A DNA stretch of 37,827 nucleotides, taken from positions 1-37,827 of the forward strand of contig JAUNHQ010000027.1 in assembly GCA_030535425.1 (NCBI GenBank), written 5' to 3'. This document shows positions 12,903 to 31,626 of this stretch, in pieces. The first letter of the stretch is position 1; every line of letters begins with the position of its first letter. The notes under the pieces are model-generated. The model did not search any database. It saw nothing but the letters and a program-made list of their open reading frames with translations, and was not told the DNA's origin. The position numbers and the translations under genes are program-made. Origin of the DNA: Pseudomonadota bacterium. GTDB taxonomy: Bacteria; Pseudomonadota; Gammaproteobacteria; Burkholderiales; Burkholderiaceae_C.

Positions 12903-15425
12903 ATGAAACGCCGTCACACCGCCACCCACCGTTCACTGCAAGCGGCTTTGCGCCGCGCCGGCCTGCTGGGCGGCGGTCTGCTGCTGGCCGCAGGCGCGCA
13001 AGCCGGCATGGTCACCGACGCGCACGGCAACGTGGGCTATGACACCGCCGCCGAGTGCGACGCCGCCGTGCATGCAGGCACCGCGCGCTATTACCAGCCC
13101 GTGACCACCCGCAAACCCGCGCGCAAGCAAGGCGAGGCCAGCGTGCGCACCATCCGCTTGAGCGAGCTGTCCACCGCCACCGCCCAGGCGGCCGGTCTGC
13201 GCTACAGCGCGGCCGACTACACCCGCGGCGCGTGCGACCTGGGCATCCGCCACGTGCATGGCCGCCCCGACATCACACCTGAGCTGGTCGGCAAATGGGT
13301 GCCCTTTGCCCCCGACATGCGGCTGAACCTGTACAGCGATGCCCAAGGCCAGCCCGTGCGCGCCACCATGGCGCAGTGCGACAACGGCTTTTCCGGCAAC
13401 CTGCCGCGCCCCGTGCCACCCGCCCCCGCCGTGGCCCAGCAAGCACCGCAGGCGCCACAAGCCCAGCCCAACCAGTGCTTTGCCAACATCCTCATCCCGG
13501 CCAAGTTTGAAACGCGCACCCAGCAAGTGCTGGTGGCGCCGGCCACCCAGCGCGAAGAAGTGGTGCCCGCCACCTACAAAACCGTGACCGAGCAAGTGCT
13601 GGTACAGCCCGAAACCCGCCGCCAGGTGCCCGTGCCTCCCACCCTGCGCACCGTGACCGAAGACGTGGTCGTGCGCCCCGCCGGCACGCGCGACGAGCCC
13701 GTGCCGCCCACCTTCAAGACCCAGACCGAGCAGGTCCAGAACAAGGCCGCAGGCAGCCGCTTCGAGGTCTCGCCGCCCGTGTACCAGATGGTCAGGGAAC
13801 GCGTGGTGAACGTGCCCGAACACACCATTGAGCGCGTGGTGCCCGCCGTGTACAAGGAAATCGAGGAAACGGTGGAAATCAGCCCCGCCACCACCCGCAC
13901 GGAAACCGTACCGCCGCGCTACCGCACCGAAACCGAACGCGTGCTGGTGCGCCCCGAAGTACTGCAATACGTGCCCGTGCGCCTGCCCATGAAGCAAGTG
14001 CCCGAACAGCGTCTGCTGGCCGAGGCCACTACCCGCATCGAAACCGTGCCGCCCGTCATGCAAACCGTCGTGGAGCCGGTGCAGGTGCGCCCCGCCAGCA
14101 TTCGCCGCGAAGCTGTGCCCGCCGCCTACGAAATCGTCACCGAGCAAGTCAAGGTCAGCGAGCCCTACCGCGAATGGCGCCGGGGCCGCGTCTGGGTGGG
14201 CCAGGCCATTGAGGTCGTGCCCCTGCGTGGTTTCATCGTGGACCCCACGGGCCAGTTCAAAGGCCACAAGGTGGCCGACCGCACCCTGGTGCACGCAGCC
14301 GCCGGCGGCTCTTCGCGTGGCGTCGTGGACACGGGCATGACGCCTGCTGACAACACCTCGCTCGAAGACGACGTGATGTGCCTGGTGGAAGTGCCCGCGC
14401 AATACCAGACCGTTACCCGCAAGGTCTTGCGTGCGCCAGCAACGGTTAATGACGTGCAGGTGCCTGCCGAATACAAGAACGTCACCAAACAAGTCGTGGT
14501 GCGCGAAGGCATGACCCGCACCGTGCCCGTGCCTGCCAAGTACCAGAGCGTGTACCGGCAAGAGGTGGACTTCGAGCGCGCCCGGGCTCTGGGCTACAAA
14601 TTTGACGACGCGGGCGAGCTCGTGGCCACCCCCAATGGCCAGCGCGTGGTGCGCGCTGCTGCCGTGGCCGGTCAGCCCCATGTGCAGATCGACCGTGCCA
14701 TTGCACCCGATGCCTGGGTGCGCGAAATCCGCATTCCGGCCGAATACCGCAACATCAACCGTTACGTGCCCGAGCAGCCTGCCAGCGTGCGTGTGGTGGA
14801 TGTGCCTGCCGCCAAGCGCACCATCAAGCGCCGCGTACTGGTAGAGCCGGCCCGGACCGAAACCGTCACCATTCCCGCGACGTACAAGACCGTTGCCAAG
14901 CAGGTGCTGGTGCAGCCCGAAGTCACACGCGAGGTACCGGAACCGGCTGAACACCAGACGCTCACCCGCTACGAGTTGGACCAGCCGGCCAGCCTGCGTC
15001 AGGTGGATGTACCCGCCGTGGTAGCGCCCATCACGCGCCAGGAAGTGGTGCAAGAAGCCAGCGTGCGCGAAGAAGTGGTGCCCGCCGTATATCGCACCGA
15101 AACCCGCCAGGTCATCGACCAGCCCGCCACCACCCGCACGGTGGATGTGCCTGCCCAGTACGAAACCATCTCCTGGCTGGTGAAAGTCGCCGACGCGCGC
15201 GAAGAGCGCCGCGAAGTCATGTGCGAAACCAACACGTCTCCCGACAAGATCAGTGAGGTACAGCGTGCTTTGCAGTCAGTAGGCTTCAATCCCGGCGCCG
15301 TGAACGGCGTGCTCAGCCCAGCCACCATGCAGGCCGTGTCCGATTACCAGCTTGCCCGCGGACTGCCCGCCCATGGCTATCTGGATGTGGACACCGTTCG
15401 TGCCTTGGGCGTAGCGCCCAATTGA
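12903..15425 (+). CDS. Secreted 23-residue-repeat protein with C-terminal peptidoglycan-binding domain
   Basis: 840 residues. The start MKRRHTATHRS is followed by a hydrophobic stretch (RAGLLGGGLLLAAGAQAG), a Sec signal peptide, with GAGGGAAG upstream as ribosome site. Residues about 35-180 form an unrecognised domain with several cysteines. Then come about twenty units of exactly 23 residues: ten in a row from residue 198, two and a partial third from 497, and seven from 611. A typical unit reads VPATYKTVTEQVLVQP then ETRRQVP. The interruptions contain inserts of about 70 and 45 residues. Residues about 779-838 are a PG_binding_1 domain (ISEVQRALQSVGFNPG; NGVLSPATMQAVSDYQ). I infer an elongated periplasmic or outer-surface protein anchored to the wall. 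A CsgG-like lipoprotein gene follows by 131 bp. Confidence 0.9.
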   Translation: MKRRHTATHRSLQAALRRAGLLGGGLLLAAGAQAGMVTDAHGNVGYDTAAECDAAVHAGTARYYQPVTTRKPARKQGEASVRTIRLSELSTATAQAAGLRYSAADYTRGACDLGIRHVHGRPDITPELVGKWVPFAPDMRLNLYSDAQGQPVRATMAQCDNGFSGNLPRPVPPAPAVAQQAPQAPQAQPNQCFANILIPAKFETRTQQVLVAPATQREEVVPATYKTVTEQVLVQPETRRQVPVPPTLRTVTEDVVVRPAGTRDEPVPPTFKTQTEQVQNKAAGSRFEVSPPVYQMVRERVVNVPEHTIERVVPAVYKEIEETVEISPATTRTETVPPRYRTETERVLVRPEVLQYVPVRLPMKQVPEQRLLAEATTRIETVPPVMQTVVEPVQVRPASIRREAVPAAYEIVTEQVKVSEPYREWRRGRVWVGQAIEVVPLRGFIVDPTGQFKGHKVADRTLVHAAAGGSSRGVVDTGMTPADNTSLEDDVMCLVEVPAQYQTVTRKVLRAPATVNDVQVPAEYKNVTKQVVVREGMTRTVPVPAKYQSVYRQEVDFERARALGYKFDDAGELVATPNGQRVVRAAAVAGQPHVQIDRAIAPDAWVREIRIPAEYRNINRYVPEQPASVRVVDVPAAKRTIKRRVLVEPARTETVTIPATYKTVAKQVLVQPEVTREVPEPAEHQTLTRYELDQPASLRQVDVPAVVAPITRQEVVQEASVREEVVPAVYRTETRQVIDQPATTRTVDVPAQYETISWLVKVADAREERREVMCETNTSPDKISEVQRALQSVGFNPGAVNGVLSPATMQAVSDYQLARGLPAHGYLDVDTVRALGVAPN
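13494..15215 (+). repeat. Twenty 69-bp coding repeats (23 aa units)
   Basis: Units start with codons for V/I-P-A/P at 13494 and every 69 bp to 14115, again at 14391, 14460 and 14529, and at 14733 and every 69 bp to 15147. Conserved positions are P2, Y/F5, T7, T9, V12, P16 and R20. DNA identity between units is low, so the array is old at DNA level but conserved in protein. Confidence 0.85.
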
Positions 15426-15556
15426 TGATGCGCAACTGATCGGCCACCGGCGAACAAGCATGCAGCCATGGCATGATCGGCACTGTTAAAAATTTGTTCC
15501 TCAAGACTCTTTATGTGCCCTTTGCGGGCCGGATGTAAACCAAGGAGATCCCAACT

Positions 15557-16462
15557 ATGTCGTCTCAAAGAACCTTGGCCGTACTGGCCGCTGCAGGCCT
15601 GGCTGCCCTGCTGGCAGGCTGTGAAACCACCAGTCTGAAAATGGGCGGCGGTGGCACGGTGGCCAGCGGCGCCGCCGGCGGCGCCACCGCCACGGGGGAA
15701 AACTCTCAACTGGAAAAATGTGATTCGCCCCTGGGCACCGTTTCCCTGGTTGAAAACGAAAACGCGGGCTGGTACACGATTCTGCGCAATGAATACCGCT
15801 TGCCTCCTACCAGCAACCTGCTGCGCTTGATGATCCAGCAGTCCAACTGCTTCATCGTGGTAGAGCGCGGTGCCGCAGGCATGCGCGCCATGAGCCGTGA
15901 ACGCGAACTGATGCAGTCTGGCGAAATGCGCCGTGGCAGCAACTTCGGGCGCGGTCAGATGGTGGCATCTGACTATGGCATGTCGCCTGAAATCATCTTC
16001 AGCGAAGGCAATACCGGAGGCGTCGCCGCCAGCCTGGGTGGCTTGTTTGGCAGTGTGGGCAGCGTGGTCGGTGCCGTGGCCGGCAACACCAAGACGCGCG
16101 AAGCCACCACCATGCTCACGCTGGTGGACAACCGCTCAGGTGTGCAAGTGGCTGCCTCGCAAGGCAGCGCCACCAAGACTGACATTGGCGGCATGGCCAG
16201 CCTGTTTGGCGGCAGCGGTGCGGGCGGCGTAGGGGGCTACCAGAACACCCCGCAGGGCAAAGTCATTGCCGGCGCCTTCATGGATGCCTACAACAACATG
16301 GTGCGCTCGGTGCGCAACTACCGCGCGCAATCTGTCAGTGGCCAGGGTCTGGGCGGCGGCGGTCGTCTGAATGTGGATGGCGGCGCGGCGCCCAGCCAAA
16401 CCTCTGCGCCCAAGAGCACGGGCAGCACCAGCCGTAGCCGCAGCAGCACCAACCGTCGCTGA
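15557..16462 (+). CDS. CsgG/HfaB-family outer-membrane lipoprotein
   Basis: 301 residues. The signal peptide ends in the lipobox LLAGC (lipidated Cys22), so it is a lipoprotein. The middle (about residues 55-245) follows the CsgG fold: LGTVSLVENENAGWYTIL, LRLMIQQSNCFIVVERG, then MSPEIIFSEGN, and TMLTLVDNRSGVQVAASQGSA, ending with IAGAFMDAYNNMVRSV. Family members form outer-membrane pores (curli) or holdfast-anchor assemblies; no curli subunit genes are present here. A Ser/Arg-rich tail (SRSRSSTNRR) is unusual. AAGGAG lies ten bases before ATG 15557. A strong terminator follows at 16535, so this ends the rightward unit that begins with the repeat protein. Confidence 0.88.
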   Translation: MSSQRTLAVLAAAGLAALLAGCETTSLKMGGGGTVASGAAGGATATGENSQLEKCDSPLGTVSLVENENAGWYTILRNEYRLPPTSNLLRLMIQQSNCFIVVERGAAGMRAMSRERELMQSGEMRRGSNFGRGQMVASDYGMSPEIIFSEGNTGGVAASLGGLFGSVGSVVGAVAGNTKTREATTMLTLVDNRSGVQVAASQGSATKTDIGGMASLFGGSGAGGVGGYQNTPQGKVIAGAFMDAYNNMVRSVRNYRAQSVSGQGLGGGGRLNVDGGAAPSQTSAPKSTGSTSRSRSSTNRR

Positions 16463-16534: not shown

Positions 16535-16563
16535 AAAACGGCCTTTCATCAGGCCGTTTTTTT
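16535..16563 (+). terminator. Rho-independent terminator
   Basis: AAAACGGCCT (16535-16544) pairs perfectly with AGGCCGTTTT (16551-16560) across a 6-nt loop, followed by more T residues. It ends the CsgG-like lipoprotein gene. Confidence 0.93.
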
Positions 16564-29966: not shown

Positions 29967-30042
29967 GCTGCGTATCGATAAACCGGGCGACTTGTGGCCG
30001 AATGCGGCATTCGTTTTTGTCAGTCATTCCTGGAGTTGTGCC

Positions 30043-31233
30043 ATGAGTTTTCCCGTCAATGCTGTCAACAACGCGGCCCGCGCCGCCAGCCATGCGCCTA
30101 CTGGCGCACTGTCTGATACCGCCCGTCAGGCGGTAGACAAGGCAACCGACATGGGCACGCTTAATCCGGGGCGGCTGGCAGAAGACCTCTCGCGCCGCCC
30201 GGCGGCCGAGCGTGAGCAACTGCTGCAAGAAATCAGCCCCGGCCTTTCACCGCGCGATGCCGAAAGCCTGACGCAAGAGCTGGCCGCGCGCGGCACGCCG
30301 GTGCAAGGCGCGGAGCAAAGCGCAGGGGCGGCCAAGCCCAAGGCCGATGAGGTGGACGCGGGCGAGCTGGCGCTGGATCTGGCCCAGATCGGCCTGGACA
30401 TTGCGGGCATTTTTGACCCCACCCCCATCTCCGACGGCGCCAATACCCTGATATCGCTGGGCCGTGGCGACTGGCTGGGCGCAGGCCTGAGCGCCGTGAG
30501 CATGATCCCCTACGTGGGTGACCTGGCCAAGGCGGGCAAGCTGGGCAAATACGCCGAAACCGTGGCCAAGGCCGTCGATGCCGCCAAGGCCAACCCGGCC
30601 CTGGCCGAAAAGCTGGCCCCGGCGCTCAAAACCATCCGCGACACTATCGACCAGCTGCCGCTGGAAAAGCTGCCTGATTCGGTGCGCGAGGGGCTGGCGC
30701 CCATCAAGGGCAAGCTGGATGACTTTGCGCGCATTGGGGTGCGCGAGGTTACCGAACAATCAGCCAAGTACGGCAAAAACGAAGTGACTTGGATACAAAA
30801 TGCCAATGGGGAGACCATTGGGGCGCGTGGTACGCTGCGCGAGGTGTCCACAGGTTTGAAGCGTTCGTCTGCTGAGGTTGCAGATCAGGCTGCCATTGGT
30901 AAAAGGGGTTTGTCTGACGATGAAGGTGGACATATCATCGGCCACCGCTTCATGCCTGACCAGGGCATAAAAAACATGTTTCCCCAGAATGCCAATTTTA
31001 ATCGAAGTGCCTACAAAACGATGGAAAACGAGTGGGCCGATTGGATTAAAAGCGGAAAAGAGGTTTTGACTGAAGTCAAGCTTGTCGGCGGCAAAGATGG
31101 CCGACCTGCCGAATTAGAAGTTTTCTATCAAGTCATCGATCCAAAATCGGGCAGCATAAAATATGAGAACTTCGTTAGCTTTGAAAATAAAGCTGGTCAA
31201 AGTTTTGATCGGGTCAACAAGAAAGACATGTAA
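30043..31233 (+). CDS. Polymorphic toxin with C-terminal DNA/RNA non-specific endonuclease domain
   Basis: 396 residues. The first 240 are helical: DLAQIGLDIAGIFDPTPISD and GLSAVSMIPYVGDLAKAGK form the hydrophobic pre-toxin module often placed before toxin tips. The C-terminal 110 residues carry the nuclease: DDEGGHIIGHRF (catalytic His297) and NMFPQNANFNRSAYKTMENE, the Endonuclea_NS_2 pattern seen in YeeF-like toxins. The DNA turns abruptly from high to much lower GC at about 30760, marking an exchangeable tip. GGAG precedes ATG 30043 by nine bases. No PAAR, Rhs, LXG or signal sequence is present, so delivery is unknown. The next gene is the probable immunity protein. Confidence 0.85.
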   Translation: MSFPVNAVNNAARAASHAPTGALSDTARQAVDKATDMGTLNPGRLAEDLSRRPAAEREQLLQEISPGLSPRDAESLTQELAARGTPVQGAEQSAGAAKPKADEVDAGELALDLAQIGLDIAGIFDPTPISDGANTLISLGRGDWLGAGLSAVSMIPYVGDLAKAGKLGKYAETVAKAVDAAKANPALAEKLAPALKTIRDTIDQLPLEKLPDSVREGLAPIKGKLDDFARIGVREVTEQSAKYGKNEVTWIQNANGETIGARGTLREVSTGLKRSSAEVADQAAIGKRGLSDDEGGHIIGHRFMPDQGIKNMFPQNANFNRSAYKTMENEWADWIKSGKEVLTEVKLVGGKDGRPAELEVFYQVIDPKSGSIKYENFVSFENKAGQSFDRVNKKDM

Positions 31234-31251
31234 GGAGTTGATACTTATTCT

Positions 31252-31626
31252 ATGGAAAATGAACTATTGATTCAGTTGTGTCAGACGGCACTGAAAGAGG
31301 CTCGCTTGCCAGAAGAATGGGAAAAACTGATTCTGGTTGGCAAGCGGGGCGAGGGTTTTGCTTCGATGTCAGGTTACGCCTTTGACCGCCGGGGCGACTC
31401 TCACGCCACATCACCACGAGGCGAGACCATTCGTGCTATGAAGCAGTTGGCGCAAGCCATGACAGACACCAGCCCAACAGGCAAGCCGTGGGTATCGTGC
31501 CTGTTGAGAATAGGTCATGACGGACAGTTTGGCGCGGATTTCGAATATGATGACGTGGGGCGATGGGCCATTGGACCAGGAAACATGGAGCAGCGCATCG
31601 CCGAGTTTGCTTCCATGCCCGTCTGA
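31252..31626 (+). CDS. Immunity protein, YezG/DUF600-like
   Basis: 124 residues, no signal peptide, so cytoplasmic. It has the layout of the YezG family immunity proteins: WEKLILVGKRGEGFASMSGYAFD, then PWVSCLLRIGHDGQFGADFEY and DDVGRWAIGPGNMEQRIAEF. Relatives neutralise NS_2-type nuclease toxins, which matches the gene directly upstream (18-bp gap). Similarity is judged by pattern only, so another Imm family is possible. AAGGAG overlaps the toxin stop, 14 bases before the ATG, which is a little long. Like the toxin tip it is low in GC. A strong terminator follows. Confidence 0.7.
   Translation: MENELLIQLCQTALKEARLPEEWEKLILVGKRGEGFASMSGYAFDRRGDSHATSPRGETIRAMKQLAQAMTDTSPTGKPWVSCLLRIGHDGQFGADFEYDDVGRWAIGPGNMEQRIAEFASMPV

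What the first reader, a model, noticed from the sequence alone, without database searches (positions are those of the whole stretch)
12903..16462. 23-residue-repeat wall-binding protein next to a CsgG-like pore lipoprotein
About twenty units of exactly 23 residues (P2, Y5, T7, T9, V12, P16, R20 conserved), interrupted twice by inserts, then a PG_binding_1 domain; the next gene is a CsgG/HfaB lipoprotein with no curli or holdfast genes near. A regular 23-residue period with alternating beta-prone halves suggests a solenoid or long fibre. The pair may build an envelope-spanning structure or use the CsgG ring as an anchor.
Basis: partly seen in the sequence, partly recalled or inferred. Interest (0 to 1): 0.75.

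Follow-up and report, generated by a model that had tools for sequence, protein, structure and literature searches.

The report
Mirror-paired repeat rod bound to peptidoglycan
An exported bacterial protein built of twenty 23-residue units probably folds back on itself so that the first unit pairs with the last, the second with the next-to-last and so on, forming a cell-wall-anchored rod, while the pore-like gene beside it is probably not its partner.

Summary
The repeats are real: 20 units of exactly 23 residues, two inserts, then PG_binding_1; a CsgG-family lipoprotein gene starts 131 nt downstream. A functional pair is not supported. In Ottowia the two genes do not co-occur beyond chance (p=0.33), no CsgG-like gene was found in 21 neighbourhoods of repeat-protein relatives outside the genus, and CsgG-like relatives often carry their own PG_binding_1 domain (17 of the 30 best-ranked loci). 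The new result concerns the repeats. No Pfam or NCBIfam model covers them, yet they recur across Pseudomonadota as block A, linker, block B. The blocks hold equal unit numbers in 44 of 44 clear proteins (2/2 to 13/13), although two of four proteins examined later break this. Unit i of A is charge-complementary to unit n+1-i of B: 368 opposite and 0 same-charge pairs at three position pairs (0 of 5000 unit-order permutations as good). Extra units of longer homologues lie at mirror positions, within one unit. The best explanation is an antiparallel hairpin rod with both ends at the peptidoglycan-binding base.

The parts
12903..15425 (+). repeat protein gene, 840 aa
12903..13007 (+). signal-peptide-like N terminus (residues 1-35; read by eye, no predictor run)
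   Evidence: sequence
13008..13412 (+). N-terminal domain, residues 36-170, three Cys; found elsewhere fused to outer-membrane beta-barrels
13476..13478 (+). Cys192, position -5 of the first unit of block A
13494..14183 (+). block A: 10 units of 23 residues (198-427); position 10 is E in 9 of 10
14184..14390 (+). linker between the blocks (428-496), proposed hairpin tip, with conserved EWRRGR
14379..14381 (+). Cys493, position -3 of the first unit of block B
14391..14597 (+). block B, units 1-3 (497-565)
14598..14732 (+). insert inside block B (566-610)
14733..15215 (+). block B, units 4-10 (611-771); position 10 is R/K in 9 of the 10 units of block B
15222..15224 (+). Cys774, position +26 of the last unit, proposed partner of Cys192
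15243..15407 (+). PG_binding_1 domain
15557..16462 (+). CsgG-family lipoprotein gene; neighbour, probably not part of the same device

Best explanation
The gene encodes an exported protein whose 23-residue units form two blocks that pair with each other in antiparallel order: unit 1 of block A with unit 10 of block B, unit 2 with unit 9, and so on, position p of one strand opposite position 20-p of the other. The linker after block A is the tip of the hairpin. Both chain ends, the N-terminal domain and the C-terminal PG_binding_1 domain, lie at the open base, probably closed by a disulfide between Cys192 and Cys774. The result is a two-ply rod standing on peptidoglycan, whose length changes by adding matched unit pairs. 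Shown from sequence: block layout, equal unit numbers, mirror charge complementarity, PG_binding_1 match. Inferred: beta-strand pairing, the disulfide, periplasmic location, and use as a stay or ruler that holds its tip at a set distance from the wall. The downstream CsgG-like lipoprotein is a neighbour and probably not an obligate partner.
For: Block layout and equal unit numbers in 44 of 44 proteins with clear blocks, 10 of them Ottowia-type rows of alignment A1: 2/2 x5, 3/3 x10, 4/4 x8, 5/5, 6/6, 10/10 x17, 12/12, 13/13. Position 10 in 10 long non-redundant proteins (105 units per block): block A 104 acidic and 0 basic, block B 0 acidic and 84 basic; in 25 short proteins (83 units per block) A 47/16, B 17/47. 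Mirror pairs at 10-10, 6-14 and 14-6: 368 opposite, 0 same; same-order pairing 318 opposite, 24 same; permuted unit order as good in 0 of 5000, for long and short sets alike. Polarity is swapped pair-wise in 12 mirror pairs of 8 short proteins, 7 pairs in 4 non-redundant ones. Residual unit-specific charge covariation in the 10 long proteins is strongest for mirror order and register 20: -65 against a permuted mean of -0.8, sd 12.7, 0 of 5000, and 0 of 400 after allowing for 17 registers. Extra units of L158 and L159 against L157 best fit A2-4 and B9-11, mirror positions within one unit. Cys at -5 of A1 in 34 of 34, Cys at +26 of the last unit in 17 of 17 PG_binding_1 carriers. PG_binding_1 E=2.5e-12. 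The N-terminal domain is fused to Pfam OMP_b-brl barrels in two genomes, E=6e-13 and 1.8e-10, which suggests the periplasmic side.
Against: No structure or prediction. Two of four proteins examined afterwards break the equal-number rule: one has 10/6 units, one is a run of 8 units without linker at a contig end; five of 49 proteins were set aside as unclear. The three position pairs were chosen after seeing the data, and pair 16-4 of the same register does not fit: long 7 opposite, 6 same; short 9 and 15. In the Ottowia set alone register 28 scores better than 20, and 33 of 400 permutations reach the value over all registers; in the n=3,4 set the best row is mirror units with parallel residues. 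Mean charge profiles of the short set give no clear register. Inserted-unit placement is ambiguous by one unit because units are alike. The homologues are related, so counts are not independent. Peptidoglycan binding rests on a family match.
Confidence: 0.68

Rival explanations
1. One reading: the repeat protein and the CsgG-like lipoprotein form one envelope-spanning device, the CsgG ring serving as exit or anchor for a fibre.
For: Adjacent and on the same strand in 7 of 7 Ottowia genomes that have both. Both families are linked to PG_binding_1: CsgG-like relatives carry it in the same frame in 17 of 30 loci, and five Ottowia genomes have a small PG_binding_1 gene after the CsgG-like gene. 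No terminator-like site lies between the two genes in the window.
Against: In 17 good-quality Ottowia genomes: both 4, repeat only 4, CsgG-like only 7, neither 2, Fisher p=0.33. No CsgG-like gene in 21 neighbourhoods of relatives outside the genus. The CsgG-like gene lies close downstream of a ParB-like gene in 10 of 19 relatives' loci that have no repeat gene there. No Q.G..N curlin motif in the repeat protein.
Confidence: 0.1
2. Blocks A and B pair between two molecules, giving a swapped dimer or a fibre instead of a hairpin within one chain.
For: Charge complementarity and equal numbers fit pairing in trans as well as in cis.
Against: The paired Cys at both chain ends, at almost the same register as the strands (-5 and +26, sum 21 against 20), fits closing within one chain; this is indirect.
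Confidence: 0.15
3. The two blocks are only old duplicates of each other; equal numbers and charge bias are inherited and the blocks do not touch.
For: Units are mutually similar (mean pairwise identity 0.33 in the window protein), and concerted change inside each block could make block-wide charge types.
Against: It does not predict reverse-order complementarity, pair-wise polarity swaps inside a block (L134, L135, L137), or growth of both blocks together to 12/12 and 13/13.
Confidence: 0.1

Closest known systems
Periscope proteins (Whelan et al. 2021, PMC8201768; abstract and introduction seen)
   Same: Tandem repeats thought to form a rod on the cell wall, with length varying by repeat number.
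   Different: Those are arrays of folded, nearly identical domains with a wall attachment motif; here units are 23 residues, diverged (mean identity 0.33), in two blocks of matched number, with PG_binding_1. Variation within one species was not tested.
Curli subunit CsgA with the CsgG channel (PMC3521004; passages seen)
   Same: Regular repeats of similar length (minimal motif X6QXGX2NX10) and a CsgG-family neighbour.
   Different: No curlin motif in the protein, no curlin or CsgF match in the genome, Gly 0.9% and Asn 1.3% in the units, and a PG_binding_1 domain. The paper reports that only 171 of 601 hits of the Pfam CsgG model were curli-system CsgG.
PG_binding_1 domain proteins
   Same: C-terminal domain over the curated cut-off (47.2 bits against 23).
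   Different: The repeats and the N-terminal domain have no model in Pfam or NCBIfam over a cut-off.
CsgG/HfaB family protein (name as annotated on Burkholderia and Caballeronia plasmids)
   Same: The downstream gene matches Pfam CsgG and has a lipobox.
   Different: Many close relatives are fused to PG_binding_1; pore formation is untested.

Membership tests
PG_binding_1 (repeat protein) | match over the curated Pfam cut-off | tested here: met
   47.2 bits, cut-off 23
PG_binding_1 (repeat protein) | binding to peptidoglycan | not testable with these tools
   needs a sacculus pull-down
Curlin (CsgA/CsgB) | Q-X-G-X2-N repeat motif | tested here: not met
   0 matches in 840 aa; no PF07012 hit in the protein or genome
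Curli system | CsgF in the genome | tested here: not met
   PF10614 no hit in an 88.6% complete genome
CsgG/HfaB family (downstream gene) | Pfam CsgG over cut-off | tested here: met
   29.5 bits, cut-off 20.8
CsgG/HfaB family (downstream gene) | lipobox with Cys | tested here: met
   LLAGC, residues 18-22, by eye
CsgG/HfaB family (downstream gene) | ring pore with transmembrane beta-hairpins | not testable with these tools
   structure prediction switched off; no solved relative found by sequence profile
Holdfast anchor system (HfaA, HfaD with HfaB) | HfaA and HfaD genes nearby | not tested
   no search made
LpoB | Pfam LpoB over cut-off | tested here: not met
   14.1 bits, cut-off 22.3
Periscope proteins | nearly identical tandem domains | tested here: not met
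   mean unit identity 0.33
Periscope proteins | repeat number varies within a species | not tested
   one genome per species held

The most novel reading that the evidence does not exclude
A previously undescribed kind of repeat protein: a hairpin 'zipper rod' in which each 23-residue unit of the first half pairs in reverse order with a unit of the second half, so that evolution changes its length only by inserting matched unit pairs at mirror positions, used in many Pseudomonadota as an adjustable stay or ruler standing on peptidoglycan.
Probability: 0.4. Interest if true: 0.75.

Novelty: new variant of a known kind. Interest (0 to 1): 0.6.

Why it matters
If right, the sequence alone gives the pairing plan of a repeat family without a family model, and a clean, testable rule: units must be added in mirror pairs. 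It would supply a natural length-adjustable rod for the envelope, and a case where charge complementarity between distant repeats can be read directly. It also removes a tempting wrong link to curli-type secretion, and points to a CsgG-like lipoprotein lineage that often carries its own peptidoglycan-binding domain.

Tried and rejected
Curli or amyloid reading: no curlin motif, no curlin or CsgF match in the genome. Phage or plasmid origin: no match of the full protein in plasmids and no relative in viral contigs; phage records were not searched. Solved relatives: only the PG_binding_1 part matches at low E-values; 4fd0_A at E=0.94 over residues 593-703 was taken as chance. Promoter and terminator scan: 0 promoters; 7 terminator-like sites against 5.4 expected; a 10-pair stem at 16535-16560 follows the CsgG-like gene. 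An alignment of upstream regions of CsgG-like genes gave no clear shared promoter. Literature searches for the repeat or for a CsgG and peptidoglycan-binding link gave nothing on point in this library. Hydrophobic moment of the mean unit did not show clear strand alternation. Annotated neighbours of CsgG-family genes on Caballeronia and Burkholderia plasmids were uninformative.

Rows dropped before counts: L156 (same protein as L128); L129, L147, L148, L151 and L154 set aside as unclear; one spurious unit removed from A1_L012; L132 and L161 counted with their two sub-blocks per half joined (3+3/3+3 and 2+3/3+2; by eye L161 also has one short unit in each half). The four proteins examined afterwards (L219, L251, second protein of L252, L253) are not in the 44; L251 needed one missed unit filled in, and gave 10 opposite and 0 same mirror pairs, L219 2 and 0. 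A first count of CsgG and PG_binding_1 fusions used pasted coordinates of 72 and 46 places, not all rows; the count quoted is that.
Full report
Setting. The window is one contig of a genome of the genus Ottowia: contigs of the same-genus genomes G003 and G019 are those named Ottowia beijingensis and Ottowia sp. GY511. The genome is 88.6% complete.

Observation. The repeat gene (12903-15425, 840 aa) and the CsgG-like gene (15557-16462) are as described. Lag-23 identity is 0.238 against a shuffle maximum of 0.132. There are 20 units, 19 found at first and one more by the chain search. PG_binding_1 matches at E=2.5e-12 and CsgG at E=5.6e-7. No Pfam or NCBIfam model matches the repeats over its cut-off.

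Are the two genes a pair? In 29 Ottowia genomes the repeats occur in 12 and a CsgG-like match in 21. Sixteen of the 21 are close orthologues, three (G006, G008, G022) are about 42% identical paralogues and two are fragments. Both genes, with a close orthologue, occur in 7 genomes and are then adjacent. Among 17 genomes of good quality: both 4, repeat only 4, CsgG-like only 7, neither 2; Fisher p=0.33. Counting the two paralogues too would make it 6, 2, 7, 2. In 21 fetched neighbourhoods of repeat relatives outside the genus (5.9 to 14 kb) no CsgG-like gene was found. Several of those genomes have a CsgG-like gene elsewhere, and the genomes of other families were not searched whole for it.

What the CsgG-like gene is. 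In a family sample of 299 genomes 155 have a match. In 10 of 19 loci of relatives a ParB-like gene (recognised by eye) lies upstream on the same strand, within about 2.2 kb. In Ottowia the repeat gene lies next to the same ParB-like gene in 10 of the 12 loci that have it, so adjacency can come from insertion at one site. In the 30 best-ranked loci 17 CsgG-like frames continue into PG_binding_1; these are the loci nearest to Ottowia and not a random sample. Ottowia genome G017 also has the fusion, and five others have a small PG_binding_1 gene just downstream. The link of this CsgG-like lineage to peptidoglycan is thus recurrent and does not need the repeat protein.

Distribution of the repeat. 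With the repeat region as query 29 of 348 genomes of the phylum match and 6 of 250 of the order, the window's own genome included in both. Members without PG_binding_1 are secreted-looking proteins of about 155 to 260 aa; one close relative is on a Methylobacterium bullatum plasmid, an alphaproteobacterium. Members with PG_binding_1 occur inside and outside Burkholderiales.

Two blocks. In each clear protein the units form block A, beginning 6 residues after a Cys, a linker, and block B, in most cases beginning 4 residues after a Cys. Unit numbers of A and B are equal in 44 of 44. The 44 include 10 rows of the Ottowia alignment. Five of 49 proteins were set aside. Of four proteins examined later two agree (2/2; 10/10 with one unit filled in) and two do not: a 441-aa protein with 10/6, and a run of 8 units without linker at a contig end, perhaps an assembly product.

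Mirror pairing. Position 10 is acidic in block A and basic in block B: 104/0 and 0/84 in ten long proteins. With unit i of A set against unit n+1-i of B and positions p against 20-p, the pairs 10-10, 6-14 and 14-6 give 368 opposite and 0 same charges in 44 proteins; same-order pairing gives 318 and 24. No permutation of unit order in 5000 did as well, in the 19 long or the 25 short proteins; in 14 non-redundant short proteins the result is 40 and 0, again 0 of 5000. Block-wide bias alone would not give this: in L134, L135 and L137 the polarity is swapped in single pairs, and the mirror partner is swapped too. After removal of position means, mirror order at register 20 is the best of all tested arrangements for the long proteins. 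Results against: the Ottowia set alone prefers register 28, the 3/3 and 4/4 set prefers mirror units with a parallel residue order, and pair 16-4 shows no complementarity.

Growth in pairs. Against L157 (10/10), the proteins L159 (12/12) and L158 (13/13) have extra units at A2-4 or A3-5 and at B9-11 by best fit; exact mirror places would be within one unit of these, and near-identical units make the placement uncertain.

Ends. Cys lies at -5 of the first unit in 34 of 34 proteins and at +26 of the last unit in 17, all PG_binding_1 carriers; 9 others have it at +28 or +30 and 8 lack it. The two listed members without the middle Cys (L130, L131) keep the other two. I infer a disulfide that closes the base. 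The N-terminal domain occurs in 11 of 299 family genomes. In two it is joined by a Pro/Ala-rich stretch to an outer-membrane beta-barrel, in one to a Pro/Ala-rich tail; two long proteins lack it (L075, L076). This suggests, but does not show, a periplasmic place.

Mechanism. The most likely reading is a two-ply rod, base on peptidoglycan, tip formed by the conserved linker. Whether the tip binds something is unknown. I put 0.68 on the hairpin with a wall-anchored base; the use as a stay or ruler is a further inference at perhaps 0.4.

Novelty. The repeat has no family model in the two libraries over a cut-off, and this library of papers gave nothing on it. Length-variable wall rods are known (periscope proteins, PMC8201768, abstract and introduction seen), hence 'new variant of a known kind'.

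Noticed in passing
L097-L126; for example L193:3669-6128, L197:5213-6331: CsgG-like lipoproteins of this family often end in an in-frame PG_binding_1 domain: 17 of the 30 best-ranked loci.
   Followed up: partly
L048:8004-8531, L049:5486-6013, L050:5617-6069, L057:10056-10496, L066:1422-1964: In five Ottowia genomes a small PG_binding_1 gene follows the CsgG-like gene; in the window it is absent.
   Followed up: partly
L077:910-2073 and L078:937-2103, minus strand: The N-terminal domain of the repeat protein is joined by a Pro/Ala-rich stretch to an outer-membrane beta-barrel.
   Followed up: partly
L252:1935-3257, minus strand: A Lys/Arg-rich relative with 10 units in block A and 6 in block B, an exception to the equal-number rule.
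   Followed up: no
L253:928-1710, minus strand: Eight units without linker, looking like a join of the start of block A and the end of block B, at a contig end; may be an assembly product.
   Followed up: no
L058:5335-6914: A CsgG paralogue (about 42% identical) with a Sel1-repeat gene upstream, convergent with the repeat gene.
   Followed up: no
L053:9137-10003 and L055:8300-9175, minus strand: In two Ottowia genomes without the repeat gene a lipoprotein-like gene without Pfam match stands in its place beside the CsgG-like gene.
   Followed up: no
L057:8866-9943: In Ottowia beijingensis the CsgG-like gene is split over three frames, and the repeat gene has a frame break near its end; error or decay not decided.
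   Followed up: no
window 29992-31626: A 413-aa protein ending in a non-specific endonuclease domain (PF13930, E=3.9e-14), followed by a 124-aa ORF without Pfam match; looks like a toxin and immunity pair.
   Followed up: no
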